From Candidatus Minthosoma caballi (GTDB lineage: Bacteria; Bacteroidota; Bacteroidia; Bacteroidales; Bacteroidaceae): a stretch of 64,000 nt of DNA. The stretch lies in NCBI GenBank assembly GCA_018064505.1, contig JAGHVC010000155.1, positions 1-64,000 on the forward strand, given 5' to 3'. Below are positions 610 through 64,000 of the stretch, piece by piece; the first letter of the stretch is position 1, and each line of letters opens with the position of its first letter. The notes beneath the pieces are model-generated. The model searched no databases and was not told the origin of the DNA. It saw nothing but the letters and a program-made list of their open reading frames with translations. A program made the translations under genes and the position numbers.

Positions 610-611
610 TA

Positions 612-790
612 GTTTTTAAGTTTTTGAGGTTTTGAGGTTTTGAGGTTTGAGGTTTTGAGGTTTTTGAGTTTGAGATTACCCTCATTCAGCCAAAGGTAAC
701 TACACCTCACCCCCTCACCCCCCTAACAACCTAATAACTTAAAACCTTAAAACCTTAAAACCTTAAAACCTCAAAACCTTAAAACCTCAC
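612..790. repeat. Intergenic inverted-repeat element with low-complexity arms (TTTTGAGG / CCTTAAAA) and a conserved unique core (672-710)
   Basis: Arms complementary by eye; core GAGATTACCCTCATTCAGCCAAAGGTAACTACACCTCAC recurs at 20878-20916 with 4 mismatches. Confidence 0.75.
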
Positions 791-16634: not shown

Positions 16635-18062
16635 ATGTCTGAACTTGACGAATGGCAGGGCAGTGCTCCTGCATCAGAAAACACATCTGACAATGGTGGT
16701 AGCCGCGAGGGTTATCGCTCATCTTACAACCGTGAAAATAGCTTTGGCAGTCGTCCATCATACAATCGTGGCGACCGTCCGCAGCGCCCACGCTTTAATC
16801 GCAATGATCGCGCTGCATACAGTTCTAATGGCACACAGAATGAACGCGGCTTCCGCCCATCTGGCTTTGGTGCATCTTCTGATGAAGGCACACAGCAGCG
16901 TCAGGGCGGCTACCAGCAGCGTCCTTCTTACAATAACAACCGTCAGGGCGGCTACCAGCGGCGTGGTGGCTACCAGCAGGGCGGTTACCAGCAGCGTGGT
17001 GGCTATCAGCAGGGTGGTTACCAGCAGCGTGGCGGCTATCAGCAGCGTGGTGAGCAGCAGGAAAATGGTGAGTTCGAACAGCGTGGTGGCTATCAGCAGC
17101 GTGGCGGTTACCAGCAGCGCGGTGGCTATCAGCAGCGCGGTGGCTATCAGCAGCGTGGCGGCTATCAGCAGCGCGGTGGCTACCAGCAGCGTGGCGGCTA
17201 TCAGCAGGGCGGTTACCAGCAGCGTGGTGGCTATAACAACAATCGCGGTGGCGGCTTCCGTCCTCGCACAGCTGACTACAATCCAAATGCTAAGTATAGC
17301 ATGAAGAAGCAGATTGAGTATAAGGAGTACCTTGAGGATCCAGATGCACCAATCCGCTTGAACAAGTTCCTTGCTAATGCTGGTGTTTGCTCTCGTCGTG
17401 AGGCAGATCAGTTCATTCAGGCAGGCGTTGTTTCTGTAAATGGTGAGATTGTTAGCGAACTTGGCACAAAGGTGCAGCGTACAGACACTGTTCACTTCCA
17501 CGATCAGCTTGTAAGCATCGAGAAGAAAGTGTATGTAATTCTTAATAAACCAAAGGATTATGTAACAACTTCGGATGATCCACAGCAGCGCAAGACTGTT
17601 ATGGATCTCGTGAAGAACTGCTGTCGTGAGCGCATCTACCCAGTAGGTCGTCTTGACCGTAACACTACAGGTGTTCTTCTCTTCACTAATGATGGTGATC
17701 TTGCTTCAAAGCTCACTCATCCTAAGTTCTTGAAGAAGAAGATTTACCATGTTTACCTCGACAAGAACTGCACTGCAGCTGATATGAATCAGATTGCAGA
17801 AGGCATCACTCTCGAGGATGGCGACATCAAGGCTGACGCTATCAGCTATGCAAGCGACACAGACCGCAAGCAGGTTGGCATTGAGATTCACTCTGGAAAG
17901 AACCGCATCGTTCGTCGTATCTTCGAGAGCCTTGGCTACAAGGTTTGCAAGCTCGATCGCGTAATGTTTGCAGGCCTCACAAAGAAGGGCCTCAAGCGTG
18001 GTGACTGGCGATTCCTCACAGAACAGGAAGTTGCAATGCTTCACATGGGTTCGTTTGAATAA
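16635..18062 (+). CDS. RsuA/RluB-family 23S rRNA pseudouridine synthase with long GGYQQR-repeat N-terminus
   Basis: S4 domain RLNKFLANAGVCSRREADQFIQAG; VGRLDRNTTGVLLFTNDG; 18-nt repeats encoding GGYQQR at about 16905-17240. Confidence 0.92.
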   Translation: MSELDEWQGSAPASENTSDNGGSREGYRSSYNRENSFGSRPSYNRGDRPQRPRFNRNDRAAYSSNGTQNERGFRPSGFGASSDEGTQQRQGGYQQRPSYNNNRQGGYQRRGGYQQGGYQQRGGYQQGGYQQRGGYQQRGEQQENGEFEQRGGYQQRGGYQQRGGYQQRGGYQQRGGYQQRGGYQQRGGYQQGGYQQRGGYNNNRGGGFRPRTADYNPNAKYSMKKQIEYKEYLEDPDAPIRLNKFLANAGVCSRREADQFIQAGVVSVNGEIVSELGTKVQRTDTVHFHDQLVSIEKKVYVILNKPKDYVTTSDDPQQRKTVMDLVKNCCRERIYPVGRLDRNTTGVLLFTNDGDLASKLTHPKFLKKKIYHVYLDKNCTAADMNQIAEGITLEDGDIKADAISYASDTDRKQVGIEIHSGKNRIVRRIFESLGYKVCKLDRVMFAGLTKKGLKRGDWRFLTEQEVAMLHMGSFE

Positions 18063-24047: not shown

Positions 24048-24350
24048 GCCTTTCACGCTTTATCGCTTACGCCTTGTAAGCCATATTGCTTACGCCCGAT
24101 AAGCGATCAAGCTTGACGGGCGCAAGCTTTTCACCCTCCGCTTTGTACCTCTCAAGAGGTGTGACTCACACCGGTATAGATGATGTGACTCACATCGGCA
24201 TAGGTGGTGTGAGTCATAACACTTAAGGCGTACAAGGCATACGCCTGCAATGGTGCGCCTTGCAATCTCACGGAGGCGAAAGGCATACGCCCAAAGATGT
24301 GCAAGGCATGCGCTTGTGACAGCGTCCTAGGACGATGTCTTTCCCTCAAA
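24048..24350. repeat. Intergenic heptamer array in a 23 (locally 24) bp register
   Basis: Unit starts 24048 GCCTTTC, 24071 GCCTTGT, 24094 GCCCGAT, 24140 GCTTTGT, 24163 GACTCAC, 24187 GACTCAC, 24211 GAGTCAT, 24234 AAGGCAT, 24257 GCCTTGC, 24280 AAGGCAT, 24303 AAGGCAT. Confidence 0.75.
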
Positions 24351-47430: not shown

Positions 47431-47676
47431 TGTTTCGGTGTTTATTGTTTTGATTGTTAGTATATTCGCTTTATTCGCTTTAAGAGAATACGCTTATTCG
47501 CACGGTGTGAATAACAGTAGTCATAGAGGTTGAATGAAGGTATCCATACGGCAAGAATAACCGCATTCACTGGAAGAGTGTTTTGTGAATACTCCTGCGA
47601 TTGTGTGGAGTGGGGGAGAGTGATTGTTTTGAGGCATCTTTAGGTGGTGTTGGTGGAAATGAATTTAGTAAGAAAG

Positions 47677-56854: not shown

Positions 56855-58204
56855 TTATTGTTTTTTTAGAGATTGCAATCTCTTTTGACGATTTTTGCGG
56901 CGACGATAGCGCTTAACCTTGCGATAAATAATGCTGTAAATAATGATAGAAAGCACTGCAATGACGAAAGTGAGCATCTTCCAGTTAAGGTTATTTCCTT
57001 TCACTCGGCTCCACATTTCAAGCATTGCTTCATTGCGATCAGCAGTGTCGTGCATAAGCACACATCTGTTGATGACGCTAATGTCTGGATAGTAAACATG
57101 ATTTAGACGAACATGCTTTGCATCTTCTCCGAAGAAATAGCTGGCGTCGAGGTAATCACATTCCTCATCTTCCATTTCTTCAAGCACATAAGGAGTTGCA
57201 ATGACAGAAACATAGCCTGTTTCGTCCATGTTACGGACAGCATTTTCTTCCATGCAAAGGAAATTTATCCAATAGCTTGCTGCTTTCGGATTCTTAGCAT
57301 AGATAGGGATAACCCATCCGTCAAACCATGCATTTGAACCTTCTTTAGGAACTACATAAGCAAGATCAACTCCGTCTTCTTCTTCGTCGATTGCCCATTG
57401 GGCATCTCCGCTCCATGTAGCATTAAGCCAAACTTTGCCTTGGCACATGCGCTCTTTTCCGAAGTCTGCTTCCCAACCAGCAATCTGAGGTTTAGCCTGA
57501 ATCAGTACATCTTCAACAGCAAGTATGTTTTCATCAGTAAGGTTGACGGCTAAATCCTGACGATTCACCGTGCCTTTTTCTATTTCGTCTGCTTTTGCAA
57601 ACTGAATCAAAACAGAATATACATCACGGAAAGCATCCTTCATGTATAGCTGGTTTTTGAAGCGAGGGTTGAGCAAAGCAGCCCATGACTGTACTTCTCC
57701 ATCTTTCACATACTTGCGGTTGTAAAGGAATCCTGTAGTTCCCCACATGTAGCCAACTGTGTATTCTTTCACATTTTGTTTCGCATCAGCAGCCATCTCC
57801 TGAAACATTGCTTCTGCCCAAGGGGATACATTGTCAAGATAGTTAGGAGTGTTTGTTTTTGCAAAATATGAAATGTTGATTTTCTGAAGAAGATTACGCT
57901 TCAGCATTCGCTCAATGATGTACTCTGAAGGGCAAACAACATCATAATCTTCATGACCAACCTCAATCTCGGTAAGCATGTTTTCATTGATGTCAAATGT
58001 TTGATAAACAACCTTTACTTCTTCTCCTGTCTGTTCTTTGTACCAATCCTGAAACTCTTCGATAAGGTCGAGGTCGAGGTAGTCTGCCCAGTTATACACC
58101 TTCAAAATGTTTGCGCGATTCTGAGCACTGATGGTGAACAGTAAAGAACTGAAAATAAAGGCGGTGAGCAGCATTGCTACTCTGATTGTCATTTGTCTAA
58201 TCAT
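56855..58204 (-). CDS. potD: Spermidine/putrescine-binding protein with C-terminal TM anchor
   Basis: ANILKVYNWADYLDLDLIEEFQDWYKEQTGEEVKVVYQTFDINENMLTEIE; C-term MLTFVIAVLSIIIYSIIYRKVKRYRRRKNRQKR. Confidence 0.88.
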   Translation of the reverse strand: MIRQMTIRVAMLLTAFIFSSLLFTISAQNRANILKVYNWADYLDLDLIEEFQDWYKEQTGEEVKVVYQTFDINENMLTEIEVGHEDYDVVCPSEYIIERMLKRNLLQKINISYFAKTNTPNYLDNVSPWAEAMFQEMAADAKQNVKEYTVGYMWGTTGFLYNRKYVKDGEVQSWAALLNPRFKNQLYMKDAFRDVYSVLIQFAKADEIEKGTVNRQDLAVNLTDENILAVEDVLIQAKPQIAGWEADFGKERMCQGKVWLNATWSGDAQWAIDEEEDGVDLAYVVPKEGSNAWFDGWVIPIYAKNPKAASYWINFLCMEENAVRNMDETGYVSVIATPYVLEEMEDEECDYLDASYFFGEDAKHVRLNHVYYPDISVINRCVLMHDTADRNEAMLEMWSRVKGNNLNWKMLTFVIAVLSIIIYSIIYRKVKRYRRRKNRQKRLQSLKKQ

Positions 58205-59016
58205 TTATCGCCTCCTTTCTTTGCTTCTATCGCTGCAGCTTGCTTTGCGGTTCTCATGTTGAAGATGACTAGAAGGACAAGAATCACAATGAAAATGATG
58301 CTGAACAAAGGACGAAGTTCTGGTGTGAGACCACCTTTTCGAGCATCAGCATAGATATAAGTGGAAAGAGTGTCGATGCCTCCGGAACCCTTTGTGAAGA
58401 GAGTTACCGCAAAGTCATCAATGCTAAGCGTGAGGGCAAGAATGAATCCAGAGAGCATGCCAGGACGAAGCTCTGGGAACATTACTTTGCGCAATGCGTA
58501 AAAAGGGGTTGCTCCTAAATCCAATGCGGCTTCATAGAGGTTAGGATTCATCTTGATGAGGCGTGGCATTACACTCAGCACAACATAAGGAGTGCAGAAT
58601 GCAATGTGTGCACAGATGATTGTACCAATGCCACGAGTGACTCCCATAAACACGAACAGCAAGAAAATGCTAATACCTGTAATGATGTCGGGATTAATCA
58701 TTGGGATGCTGTTGACAAAAGTAAGCAGTCGTCGCTCTCTGCGGCTCATGTTATAGATGCCAATTGCTGCAATAGAACCGAGCATTGTACTTACGGTTGC
58801 ACTGACAACAGCAATAAGCAATGTGTTGATTATCGCAGAGTTGAGAGAAGGGCCTGCTTCACCCTTGAAGAGGTTTGCATATAGGTCGAATGAGAATCCA
58901 TTCCACGACCCAAGCACTTTTGCGTCTGTGAACGAGAATATGAGGATGATAAGTATTGGCGCGTATAGTATAGCAATGACGAGCCAAAGATATGCGTTTG
59001 CTAAAAACTTTTTCAT
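58201..59016 (-). CDS. potC: Spermidine/putrescine ABC transporter permease
   Basis: WLVIAILYAPILIILIFSFTDAKVLGSWNGFSFDLYANLF. Confidence 0.9.
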   Translation of the reverse strand: MKKFLANAYLWLVIAILYAPILIILIFSFTDAKVLGSWNGFSFDLYANLFKGEAGPSLNSAIINTLLIAVVSATVSTMLGSIAAIGIYNMSRRERRLLTFVNSIPMINPDIITGISIFLLFVFMGVTRGIGTIICAHIAFCTPYVVLSVMPRLIKMNPNLYEAALDLGATPFYALRKVMFPELRPGMLSGFILALTLSIDDFAVTLFTKGSGGIDTLSTYIYADARKGGLTPELRPLFSIIFIVILVLLVIFNMRTAKQAAAIEAKKGGDK

Positions 59017-59026
59017 GTCCTATCTG

Positions 59027-59797
59027 TTAGTTTTTCGTGTCGTCATTGCCAAAGAATGATGTCAATCCGATAATTATCAAAAGAATGAGAGACAAAGCAG
59101 AACCGTAATTAAGCAAGCCGGCATTGATGTTTTCTTGAATCACGGTACCGAAAAGTTTCACATTGTTCATAGTGAGCAATTCTGCCACTGCGAAGGTGGA
59201 AATTGTAGGCATGAACACCATCACGATTCCGCTGTACACACCTGGCATAGAGAGAGGGAGTACAACATCCTTAAACACTCGGAAGTCATTGGCGCCTAAG
59301 TCCTTAGCTGCTTCTGTTAAGCTTGGATCCATCTTCTGCAAGGTGTTGTAGATAGGGTAGATCATGAATGGGAGAAAGTTATACACCATGCCAAATACGA
59401 GCGCTCCCTCGTCGAGTTCCAAATGCATGAAATCGAAAAGGGCAACCGTGGCAAGAGTGCGCAACAGTACATTAATCCACATTGGCAGAATGAAAAGCAT
59501 GGCCATAACTTTTGGAGTGGCAAAGGACTTGTTTGCCATGAAGTATGCGCAAGGGTAACCAACAAGCAGACACACTAATGTTGTTACCATTGCTATGCCT
59601 ATACTATAAATAAATGTATTAATGCTGTCTGTGGCGAGGAAGAATTTCTGGAAATACCTTATTGTGAAACCTCCTTCGTCAACAAACGAGAAATATACAA
59701 CAAGCAACAACGGCAGAATGACAAAGATTGCCATGAATACAGCATACGGATATGCCCAAACGCGGCGATTGCCTAAAAGATTCTTGAGCCAATTCAT
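59027..59797 (-). CDS. potB: Spermidine/putrescine ABC transporter permease
   Basis: YFSFVDEGGFTIRYFQKFF; LTEAAKDLGANDFRVFKDVVLPLSMPGVYSG. Confidence 0.9.
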   Translation of the reverse strand: MNWLKNLLGNRRVWAYPYAVFMAIFVILPLLLVVYFSFVDEGGFTIRYFQKFFLATDSINTFIYSIGIAMVTTLVCLLVGYPCAYFMANKSFATPKVMAMLFILPMWINVLLRTLATVALFDFMHLELDEGALVFGMVYNFLPFMIYPIYNTLQKMDPSLTEAAKDLGANDFRVFKDVVLPLSMPGVYSGIVMVFMPTISTFAVAELLTMNNVKLFGTVIQENINAGLLNYGSALSLILLIIIGLTSFFGNDDTKN

Positions 59798-59799
59798 TT

Positions 59800-60849
59800 T
59801 TATTTCTCAATCACATGAATGTCAAATGGGTCGATTGAAGCATACACTTCTTGTCCAATTTCTTGCGAATGGTAATCCTGAACTTGAAGCATATACCCTT
59901 CCTTTGTTTCTACATACATTTCATAATGCACGCCCTTAAAATTGCATGAACGCACAATGCCTGTGCAGAAATTATTGTCTGACGGTTCAATGCTAAGTTT
60001 CACATCTTCAGGGCGAATCACAACATGCACCTCTGCATTTTTTGCAAATCCTTTATCAACGCATTTCACATTGTTCCCAAAGAATTTCACTAAGCAATCC
60101 TCCAGCATGATGCCATCTATGATGTTGCTTTCACCAATGAAATCAGCTACGAAAGTGTTGACTGGCTCGTCGTAAATATGCTTTGGCGTGCCCATTTGCT
60201 GAATCACGCCACCATTCATAACAACCACAGTATCGGACATAGTGAGAGCCTCTTCCTGGTCGTGAGTGACGAATATGAAAGTGATGCCAAGCTCTTTGTG
60301 CATTCGCATCAACTCAAGCTGCATTTCCTTGCGAAGCTTCATGTCGAGAGCAGAGAGAGGCTCGTCGAGAAGAAGCACTTTTGGTTCATTGACAATGGCG
60401 CGGGCAATAGCTACTCGCTGTTGCTGACCTCCAGAAAGCTGGTTTATGTTGCGTTCCTCAAAATCTTGCAATCCCACCAAATTGAGAGCATTGACAATCT
60501 TCTCATCCATCTCCTTTTCTTTCATTCCCTTTATTTGCAATCCGAATGCAACATTCTCATATACATTGAGATGAGGGAAAAGCGCATATCTCTGGAACAC
60601 GGTGTTCATTGGGCGCTTGTATGGTGGAATCTTTGTTATATCGTTTCCTTCCAGTTTGATAACTCCTTCGGTTGGAGTTTCAAAACCTGCTATCATTCGG
60701 AGCAAAGTTGTTTTTCCGCAACCTGAAGGGCCAAGGATTGTAACAAACTCTCCTCGTTTGATATTTAGGCTAACCTTGCTGAGCACAACCTTTTGGTCAA
60801 ATGCTTTGGTTACTTGCTCAACCTGAATTATGTATTCGTTTTCTTCCAT
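59800..60849 (-). CDS. potA: Spermidine/putrescine ABC transporter ATPase
   Basis: [66 protein letters not shown]. Confidence 0.93.
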
Positions 60850-60876
60850 CTGATTTTGTGAAAATCCTATAATCTG

Positions 60877-61479
60877 TTATCTTCTTTTGAATATCAAAAA
60901 GTTTTCTTTACAGTCTTTAAGCACCATAGAAGAGTTTGTCATACTGACAACAATAATCTCACTTTCAAATGTTTGTGACATGCTGTCTAATCCTCCCTTT
61001 TTCATTCCGTCTAAAAGCATGCTCTTGAATTTGTCTTCATTCATTCCTGCTTCGTTTAAAGCATTTCTCACCTCATCCGAGCAATTCAAATTGAACTTTG
61101 TTACTTCCACTTTAGGAGCTGTCACAAAAGAATTTGGTGTTATCACTCGATCTGCCAATGTGTATTTGCCAATGCAAGACATTCTTATCCCCATATCCAT
61201 AGACATCTGCACGCTTTCTTCTGCAAAATGCATATCCATTTCAATTACAATGGATAGTGCTTCGCCATCAAAATTGAAGATCATGCTTGCTTCTTGAATG
61301 TTCTTTTGATCTTCAGCACCTACAAACTTTTTAGCGTCTGCTACCCAAGAACCTTTTAGTGTTTTCTGTGATACTTGAACAGCCTTTTCGGTTTTGTCAT
61401 GATTAGCAGCATCATTATTGTGTGCCGCGCAGCCAAGTGTGAACATGCACATCAAGGCAATAAAGTATAATTTCTTCAT
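60877..61479 (-). CDS. Lipoprotein, unknown function
   Basis: MKKLYFIALMCMFTLGCAAHNN lipobox. Confidence 0.65.
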   Translation of the reverse strand: MKKLYFIALMCMFTLGCAAHNNDAANHDKTEKAVQVSQKTLKGSWVADAKKFVGAEDQKNIQEASMIFNFDGEALSIVIEMDMHFAEESVQMSMDMGIRMSCIGKYTLADRVITPNSFVTAPKVEVTKFNLNCSDEVRNALNEAGMNEDKFKSMLLDGMKKGGLDSMSQTFESEIIVVSMTNSSMVLKDCKENFLIFKRR

Positions 61480-61675
61480 AAATATTTTTTCTTTTGTGTT
61501 ATTACACATTATTATATTTTATGCAAAGTTATGCAAAATACATAAAACTCACCAACCCTCATCCTTTTTTTTTATTTTTGTATAGTGATTTTAGCAACTT
61601 TTGTTTGTTTTTCTCCTTTCAAGGAGGCTCTATACGCCAAAAATCACTATCTTTGCACCAAAATAATAATTTGCA

Positions 61676-62830
61676 ATGAAAAAAATACTCCCATTAATAG
61701 CATTATTCGCATTTGTCTTAGCATCCTGCGACAATAAGCCAAAGTTTCATGTAGAAGGCAATATTACTGAGGCTGCAGATTCTATGCTTTATCTTGAGCA
61801 AGCAACTCTTGATGGTATTCAGAAGATTGATTCTGTGAAACTTGGAACTGATGGCTCATTTTCGTTCAAGGCGGCAGCTCCTGTTGGATGCCCAGAGTTT
61901 TATGACCTTCGCGTTGGAAATCATGTGATTAACTTCTCGGTTGACAGTACTGAGACCATCACATTTGTGGCAAAGCTTCCTGTGATGGAGAGCGATTATA
62001 CTGTGGAAGGCAGCGAGAATAGCTCTAAGATTAAGGAAATCAGCCTTATGCAGCAGAGTGTTCAGGCAAAGCTTATTGCTATTGAGAAAAGTGAGAATCT
62101 ATTGCCTGGCGATTTGATTGATAGCCTTAACAATGTGGTTGATGAATATAAGGAGCGCATTAAGCGTGATTACATTTTCCAAGAGCCTAAGTCTGCTTAT
62201 GCTTACTATGCTGTTTGCCAAAGCCTTACAGACCTTCGTGGTACATTCATGCTTTTCAATCCGGTGAGCAATCGCGACGATGTGAAGTGCTATGCGACTG
62301 TAGCTACTGCATGGGATGGCTTCTATCCAGATGCTCCTCGCACCCAGCAGCTTTGCAACATGGCTATTAAGGGTATGGACAACACTGCAACTCCACAGCA
62401 AAAGGTTGTGCAAGTGGATGAAAGCAAGATTAGCGAATCGGGAATCATCGATATTACCTTACCTGATGTGAATAGTAAATTGCACAGTATTCGTGATTTG
62501 AAAGGTAAGGTTGTGCTTCTCGACTTCACTATCTATGGCGCAAAGGAGTCGCTTGAGCGTACTCGCATGCTGCGTTCTCTCTATGAGAGATATCATGCAC
62601 AAGGATTTGAAATCTACCAGATTTCTCTTGATGATGATGTTCACTTCTGGAAGTATTCTTGCGAAAACCTTCCTTGGATTTGTGTTCACGAGACAGATGG
62701 TACTGCAACAAATGTTTATGGCATTGTAAACATTCCTACTTTCTTCTTGGTGAATCGCAGTAATGAAATTGTAGTTCGTAGCGATTTCATGACTGGCTCT
62801 CTTGAAGATGAACTCTTAAAGCTTTTGTAA
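61676..62830 (+). CDS. DUF4369 + thioredoxin-fold (TlpA-like) lipoprotein lacking CxxC
   Basis: Lipobox VLASCDN; DLKGKVVLLDFTIYGAKESLERTRMLRSLYERYHAQGFEIYQISLDDD; GIVNIPTFFLVNRSNEIV. Confidence 0.82.
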   Translation: MKKILPLIALFAFVLASCDNKPKFHVEGNITEAADSMLYLEQATLDGIQKIDSVKLGTDGSFSFKAAAPVGCPEFYDLRVGNHVINFSVDSTETITFVAKLPVMESDYTVEGSENSSKIKEISLMQQSVQAKLIAIEKSENLLPGDLIDSLNNVVDEYKERIKRDYIFQEPKSAYAYYAVCQSLTDLRGTFMLFNPVSNRDDVKCYATVATAWDGFYPDAPRTQQLCNMAIKGMDNTATPQQKVVQVDESKISESGIIDITLPDVNSKLHSIRDLKGKVVLLDFTIYGAKESLERTRMLRSLYERYHAQGFEIYQISLDDDVHFWKYSCENLPWICVHETDGTATNVYGIVNIPTFFLVNRSNEIVVRSDFMTGSLEDELLKLL

Positions 62831-62894
62831 TTCAGTTTTTTAGCTTATCCACTTGCCCTATTGAAAATAGAGAAGGGCAGAAGCAAAAGATTAC

Positions 62895-63055
62895 ACCTTA
62901 TAAAGCATGCACTTTACGCCTTGTATTGTGCGTGCTTTTTGCCTTGTGAGTTTCTAGACACATGCCTTGTGAGTTCCTGTACGCGTGCCTTGTGCGATGC
63001 GAGTGACACTCCTTATGCGACGAGAAAGCTATGCCTTGTGTGTTGAGAGTTTTTT
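62895..63055. repeat. Seven-unit 23-bp periodic heptamer array (consensus GCCTTGT)
   Basis: ACCTTAT 62895; GCCTTGT 62918, 62941, 62964, 62987; TCCTTAT 63010; GCCTTGT 63033. Confidence 0.88.
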
Positions 63056-63255
63056 GATATGCGTTTAGAGAAGAAAAAACTATAGGCGTAACAATAGCCA
63101 TGGTTTGTCGTATGGGTATTGCTAATCAATCATAAAAATGTCGGAAATGAGTTAAAAAATGTTCTTTTCTCTTAAATGAACAGAAAAATGTTTGGAGAGT
63201 TCGACAATTGTTTGTATATTCGCTATTGAAACCTAATACAAACACCTAATTGACT

Positions 63256-64000
63256 ATGGAGAGAAAGAACTACTGTATAATTTTGGCAGGCGGAATTGGT
63301 TCCCGACTCTGGCCTTTGAGCAGAGAGAGTAAGCCAAAGCAGTTTATTGATGTGCTTGGTACAGGAAAGACACTATTGCAAATGACATACGAGAGATTTG
63401 CAAGTTTTATCGATGCTGAAAATATTATAATTGTCACTAATGAGAACTATCGTTCTCTTGTGATGGATCAGATCCCAGGACTTCGATATGAAAATATGCT
63501 TATGGAGCCTATGCGCCGAAACACGGTGCCTGCTGTGACTTGGGCAGCAATGGAGGTTAAGCGCAGATGTCCTGACGGAAGATTCATCGTTAGCCCTTCC
63601 GATCAGAATATCACAGGTCTTGAGCAATTCCAAACGGATGTGCTTCGTGGTTTAGAGTATGTTGGAGAGCATAATGCTTTGCTCACTCTTGGTGCTAAGC
63701 CAAGCAGGGCAGAAATTTCTTATGGCTATATTCAGATGGCAGAAGAGGTTGATTCTGATATTTTTAAGGTACAGAGCTTTACGGAGAAACCGGCAAATGA
63801 ATTTGCGAAGCTTTTCTATGAAAGCGGAGAATTCCTTTGGAACACAGGTTTGTTCATTTGGAGCGCAGACACATTCCTTAGTGCAGTAGCCGATGCAAAT
63901 CCTGCTTTCAGTGGTATTGTTGACGCTGTTCGTTGCCGTTATGATAATGGATTTGATGCAAGCGAACAACTAATGGAGCTCTTCTGCAAGTGCCCTAATC
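63256..64000 (+). CDS. Mannose-1-phosphate guanylyltransferase, 3' truncated by window edge
   Basis: MERKNYCIILAGGIGSRLWPLSRESKPKQFIDVLGTGKTLLQMTYERF; open to window end, hence absent from ORF track. Confidence 0.9.
   Translation, partial: MERKNYCIILAGGIGSRLWPLSRESKPKQFIDVLGTGKTLLQMTYERFASFIDAENIIIVTNENYRSLVMDQIPGLRYENMLMEPMRRNTVPAVTWAAMEVKRRCPDGRFIVSPSDQNITGLEQFQTDVLRGLEYVGEHNALLTLGAKPSRAEISYGYIQMAEEVDSDIFKVQSFTEKPANEFAKLFYESGEFLWNTGLFIWSADTFLSAVADANPAFSGIVDAVRCRYDNGFDASEQLMELFCKCPN

What the first reader, a model, noticed from the sequence alone, without database searches (positions are those of the whole stretch)
62895..63055. Heptamer array in a strict 23-bp register with variable 16-nt spacers
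Directly seen: GCCTTGT (or one/two-base variants ACCTTAT, TCCTTAT) starts at 62895, 62918, 62941, 62964, 62987, 63010 and 63033, seven units with identical 23-bp spacing, while the 16 nt between heptamers are essentially different from unit to unit. 23 is not a multiple of 3 and no plausible ORF fits, so the register is not explained by coding. A conserved short anchor with diverged spacers argues for selection or a replication mechanism acting on the anchor and spacing rather than a recent tandem duplication. I know of no named Bacteroidales element of this form.
Basis: seen in the sequence. Interest (0 to 1): 0.72.

Follow-up and report, generated by a model that had tools for sequence, protein, structure and literature searches.

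The report
Spaced-repeat arrays with a 23-bp ruler
The seven evenly spaced heptamers are real and are one copy of a scattered non-coding repeat built from 23-bp modules; related rumen bacteria carry different repeats on the same 23-bp lattice while other genera of the family use 22 bp, which points to an unexplained, lineage-specific length rule.

Summary
It is not unique. The same GCCTTRT-N16 module occurs at 23 bp on 23 contigs of this uncultured rumen Prevotellaceae-type genome (49 exact pairs) and is almost absent from 120 other family genomes. Arrays are intergenic, biased to gene 3' ends, and often run forward then inverted. Other species of the genus carry different module families on the same lattice: every copy pair tested lies at 23 bp, or a multiple for one module. 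Intergenic tandem repeats in other genera of the family peak at 22 bp instead; E. coli shows none. Between two close species, orthologous arrays differ by exactly 23, 23, 46 and 69 bp, so they change by whole modules. Purifying selection on the anchor is not shown: spacers evolve fast, but anchors change no slower than flanks. The closest published element is BrickBuilt, a 23-nt intergenic minisatellite/MITE of Porphyromonas gingivalis. Its repeat sequence is absent here. I read the array as a diverged member of a BrickBuilt-like class of modular intergenic repeats. What fixes 22 versus 23 bp is unknown.

The parts
62895..62917 (+). module 1: ACCTTAT + 16-nt spacer
62918..62940 (+). module 2: GCCTTGT + 16-nt spacer; spacer 2 (62928-62938) is an inverted match to spacer 1 (62902-62912)
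62941..62963 (+). module 3: GCCTTGT + spacer
62964..62986 (+). module 4: GCCTTGT + spacer (spacers 3 and 4 alike)
62987..63009 (+). module 5: GCCTTGT + spacer
63010..63032 (+). module 6: TCCTTAT + spacer
63033..63055 (+). module 7: GCCTTGT + spacer; last module, no inverted arm found here
62855..62878 (+). short GCCCT/AGGGC hairpin between the upstream stop codon and the array
   Evidence: sequence and fold
61676..62830 (+). upstream gene: DUF4369/thioredoxin-like protein; array begins 65 bp after its stop
63250..63999 (+). downstream gene (runs past the window end): nucleotidyl transferase, mannose-1-phosphate guanylyltransferase-like; convergent with the upstream gene in most relatives

Best explanation
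The array is a diverged member of a dispersed, non-coding intergenic repeat family built from 23-bp modules (7-bp conserved part, 16-bp variable part). It belongs to a wider class of BrickBuilt-like modular intergenic elements in this bacterial family. Shown: many copies per genome; strict 23-bp lattice in this genus and 22-bp in sister genera; location mainly behind stop codons; copy number changing by whole modules between close species; leader and tail segments and a forward-then-inverted layout in sister copies. Inferred: copies spread as non-autonomous elements or by gene conversion, then lengthen and shorten by slippage or unequal exchange between modules, while variable parts drift. Also inferred, less surely: the lattice is kept because a host protein or transposase engages successive modules about two helical turns apart, and a change in that factor moved the lattice from 22 to 23 bp in this genus.
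For: Same module on 23 contigs, 49 exact pairs at 23 bp, with five other scattered spacings plus two artefacts of a motif inside a spacer. Forward-then-inverted layout and local module duplications in sister arrays. Two other module families: 30/30 and 19/19 pairs at 23 bp. A fourth module: spacings only 23, 46 and 69. Period spectrum: 23 in the genus, 22 in other genera, none in E. coli or shuffles. Whole-module indels between orthologues. 3'-end bias. Diverse housekeeping neighbours and no transposase next to the arrays examined.
Against: No parent transposase, insertion boundary, target duplication or clean empty site was found; the one truncated orthologue examined is a deletion inside the element. 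No binding protein is identified, and modules share no sequence across families, which argues against one sequence-specific binder. The window copy lacks the inverted arm and strong hairpin of its sister copies (fold z -1.1). No close relative of the host exists (at most 71% nt identity for long matches covering the upstream gene), so the window copy's own history cannot be read.
Confidence: 0.62

Rival explanations
1. Neutral minisatellite: the register is only inherited. All modules descend from old arrays, and because slippage works between homologous modules, length changes come in whole modules and 23 is copied on without any protein or selection.
For: Indels of 23, 23, 46 and 69 bp; anchors evolve no slower than flanks in indel-free arrays; one leader module, TCGTCATCWC, recurs in genus sequences on the same lattice.
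Against: Many families with unrelated sequence share one exact period within the genus while sister genera share another; single-base indels should create 21/24-bp lineages over time, and only a few 24-bp cases were seen.
Confidence: 0.3
2. Transcribed 3'-end structure: arrays act as hairpin terminators or mRNA 3' protectors, spaced by about two turns of A-form RNA (22 nt).
For: Position behind stop codons and scarcity in divergent intergenic regions; about half of the sister arrays fold far better than shuffles; dyad symmetry in half of the 22-bp arrays.
Against: The window array does not fold well (z -1.1), nor do several others; most 23-bp arrays have no significant dyad symmetry; no Rfam family.
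Confidence: 0.1
3. Operator array: tandem sites for one sequence-specific regulator of the downstream gene.
For: Conserved anchors at about two-turn spacing upstream of manC.
Against: The same module lies beside unrelated genes in many loci, mostly at 3' ends and often between convergent genes; anchors differ between species and even within one array, as in L160 and L278.
Confidence: 0.05
4. CRISPR-like array with 16-nt spacers.
For: Short repeat, regular spacing, variable spacers.
Against: Spacers recur across loci, modules duplicate with their spacers, the repeat is only 7 bp, and arrays occur at more than 20 places.
Confidence: 0.01

Closest known systems
BrickBuilt minisatellite/MITE of Porphyromonas gingivalis (PMC4596501)
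   Same: 23-nt repeat unit with a conserved and a variable half, intergenic, about 20 loci, 1-23 units, leader and tail with inverted ends, same order.
   Different: Repeat sequence unrelated and absent from this genome; its terminal repeat GAGACCTTTGCA is not at the array; described for one species and a close relative only, with no general 22/23 rule.
STAR elements of Staphylococcus (PMC3532100)
   Same: Interspersed intergenic direct repeats, conserved core with spacers, species-specific locations, expand and contract.
   Different: 14-bp GC-rich core, spacers of at least 40 bp.
REP/BIME elements with RAYT transposases
   Same: Short intergenic repeats at gene 3' ends, many per genome, often inverted.
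   Different: The window module is not palindromic; no RAYT above cut-off in this genome; strict tandem 23-bp lattice.
TAACTGA and other heptamer simple repeats (PMC4679880)
   Same: Conserved heptamer, intergenic, found in some Bacteroidetes.
   Different: Direct repeats of the heptamer itself; here heptamers are separated by 16 variable bases.

Membership tests
BrickBuilt | 23-nt tandem unit with conserved and variable part | tested here: met
BrickBuilt | repeat sequence AGAYCATARTATCCTCTCRTRTG | tested here: not met
   no match with up to 3 mismatches in the whole genome
BrickBuilt | terminal inverted repeats of IS5 type (GAGACCTTTGCA) | tested here: not met
   no site at the array; one chance-level site inside manC
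BrickBuilt | leader and tail segments | tested here: inconclusive
   inverted outer arms in sister arrays of this genome and leader/tail in the GGCTTGAATACA family; none seen at the window array
MITE (general) | target-site duplication or empty site | tested here: inconclusive
   no close relative; one orthologue pair in sister species shows an internal deletion, not an empty site
STAR element | 14-bp core T(G/A/T)TGTTG(G/T)GGCCC(C/A) | tested here: not met
   modules read directly
REP/RAYT | RAYT (Y1 transposase) gene in the genome | tested here: not met
   one sub-threshold hit only
CRISPR | unique spacers between identical repeats at one or few loci | tested here: not met
   spacers recur at many loci
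Known structured RNA (Rfam) | match to a covariance model | tested here: not met
   no credible match in 58000-64000

The most novel reading that the evidence does not exclude
Bacteria of this family carry a dedicated machinery (transposase-like or nucleoid protein) with a fixed molecular ruler. It builds or maintains intergenic arrays of arbitrary sequence on a 22-bp lattice in most genera and on a 23-bp lattice in this genus. The lattice, not the sequence, is the conserved trait.
Probability: 0.3. Interest if true: 0.85.

Novelty: new variant of a known kind. Interest (0 to 1): 0.6.

Why it matters
It turns an isolated oddity, and the single-species BrickBuilt element, into a family-wide class with a measurable rule (22 or 23 bp by lineage, sequence free to vary). 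Such a rule can be traced on the tree and tied to a gene, giving a way to find the machinery behind short intergenic repeats, whose origin is unknown for most bacteria. The arrays also change quickly between close species and could serve as strain markers.

Tried and rejected
Coding repeats: 23 and 22 are not multiples of 3 and only tiny ORFs overlap. Operator for manC: sister arrays sit by unrelated genes, often between convergent ones. CRISPR: spacers recur. REP/RAYT: no RAYT. BrickBuilt by sequence: absent. Hairpin as the essential feature: the window array and several others do not fold. Dyad symmetry as a universal feature: 9 of 36 arrays at 23 bp and 13 of 26 at 22 bp. An 11-bp half-period: none. 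Anchor under purifying selection: a pooled test looked strong (3.2% vs 13.5% in spacers and 6.8% in flanks), but after removing arrays with indels, where non-orthologous modules may be aligned, the anchor equals the flanks. Inversion of manC caused by arrays: the gene order differs from relatives, but no second array is seen beyond manC, so this is left open.

Full report
Observation. The seven heptamers are present at the stated coordinates with an exact 23-bp step. Lag-23 autocorrelation is 0.56 over the interval. No other period from 10 to 40 gives more than three units, and 1000 shuffles gave at most four. Five of seven anchor columns are invariant and no spacer column is. Only two small ORFs overlap. 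The array lies 65 bp behind the stop of a DUF4369/thioredoxin-like gene and 195 bp before a mannose-1-phosphate guanylyltransferase-like gene.

The array is one of many in its genome. The host is an uncultured bacterium. Its nearest named relatives are rumen and gut MAGs labelled Prevotellaceae, Bacteroidaceae or Bacteroidales. The closest genomes align at no more than about 71% nt identity over long matches covering the upstream gene. In the host genome, GCCTTRT pairs at 23 bp occur 49 times, on 23 contigs. When the gap may vary from 3 to 32, almost all pairs stay at 23; five scattered exceptions remain, plus two artefacts of the motif inside a spacer. In 120 other genomes of the family the count is 0 to 6. 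The consensus module is about GCCTTRT-ATCGACCGTGCGTTAY. Many arrays run forward and then turn into inverted modules (AAGGC...), and some show recent copies of one module, for example L116, L118 and L124. Neighbouring genes are diverse and mostly housekeeping; no transposase was found among those examined.

The lattice is shared by sequences that are not. I scanned intergenic DNA between ORFs of at least 150 aa for ungapped repeats at every lag from 9 to 60. The window plus 400 kb of the host gave ten arrays at 23 and none at 22. Six other species of the genus gave fourteen at 23 and two at 22. Other genera of the family (40 stretches from about twenty genera, 696 kb) gave fourteen at 22 and none at 23. 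Twenty families of the same order gave one at 22 and none at 23, and 147 kb of E. coli gave no array at any lag. Shuffles gave nothing. Bias note: several stretches in the genus were picked because a 23-bp CCTTRT pair had been seen there. Removing those arrays by hand leaves about 13 at 23 and 2 at 22, against 0 and 14 (Fisher p about 1e-6, my arithmetic; with all arrays 5e-9). Loci fetched without that bias agree: 11 at 23 and 6 at 22 in closer relatives, four of the six from L059, L069 and L072; 1 at 23 and 8 at 22 in farther ones.

Direct tests of the lattice with motifs gave the same answer. GGCTTGAATACA pairs: 30 of 30 at 23 bp. GTGAGACACC pairs: 19 of 19. TCGTCATCWC: spacings of 23, 46 and 69 only. 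Within one array the register continues across different module sequences, as in L160 and L162, L278, and with 22 bp in L072.

How arrays change. G017 and G025 are close (orthologous segments about 95% identical). Four orthologous arrays differ by 69, 23, 23 and 46 bp. Another orthologue has lost most of its array by an internal deletion. That element has a leader, two module types on one lattice, inverted modules and a tail, an anatomy like BrickBuilt. In arrays without indels, substitutions are 3.0% in anchors, 8.0% in spacers and 2.5% in flanks. So spacers are fast, but the anchors are not shown to be under purifying selection. The same test cannot be made for the window's own family because no close relative exists.

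Where arrays sit. Across the genus data, arrays are rare between divergent genes (5 of 112 such regions against 40 of 362 others, p = 0.04). Between co-directional genes, 20 of 27 lie nearer the upstream stop codon. About half of the sister arrays in the host fold as long hairpins, but the window array does not.

Homologous locus. In most relatives the two flanking genes face each other across a short gap (mostly 11-190 bp) without a 22/23-bp array. A few have an independent array there (L059 and L072 at 22; L061 weak at 23). In the window the downstream gene is flipped, so the array lies at a gene-order breakpoint. I cannot say whether it caused the change.

Interpretation. The best-supported reading is a diverged member of a class of modular, dispersed intergenic repeats, BrickBuilt-like in form (PMC4596501) but unrelated in sequence. 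Copy number changes by whole modules; this is shown in sister families. Spread through the genome and the reason for the fixed lattice are inferred. A factor that spans successive modules about two helical turns apart would explain the lattice. Plain inheritance of module length is the main rival. I found no paper in the searched library that describes a 22/23-bp rule; the library holds open-licence papers only.

Noticed in passing
window 24049-24220: Further degenerate 23-24-bp repeats with palindromic content (GCTTACGCCC.. and TGTGACTCACACCGG..) in one intergenic region.
   Followed up: partly
window 47463-47600: Weak 23-bp register of GAATA-starting units (autocorrelation 0.49).
   Followed up: no
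window 611-790: 8-bp simple repeats (AGTTTTTG and AACCTTAA) near the window start.
   Followed up: no
window 61676-63999 and L040-L074: The tlp-like and manC-like genes are convergent neighbours in most relatives but co-directional here: a gene-order breakpoint at the array.
   Followed up: partly
host genome contigs C2, C5, C50, C51, C79, C101, C120, C218: Several contigs begin within about 1.3 kb of an array, and arrays are strongly biased to the + strand of contigs (45:4 pairs), which is unexplained and may be an assembly effect.
   Followed up: no
G167 (another genus of the family): Six copies of GCCTTGTARACTTGTTGACTGAAGCCTTGT, a 23-bp GCCTTGT pair in a genus outside this one.
   Followed up: no
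L273 right flank; L285 right flank: More 23-bp arrays (GTATTTGTGTTGGCGAAAGCCAT; TCGTCATCTCCAAGCTCTGACGC) next to arrays of other families.
   Followed up: partly
L049 11162-11304, L057 4897-5045: 14-bp arrays of the heptamer types TTGACAG and GAGTTAG/GAGTGAG, a second repeat class in these genomes.
   Followed up: no
window 16944-17233: Long coding-type repeat (18/33/36-bp units), probably ordinary protein repeats.
   Followed up: no
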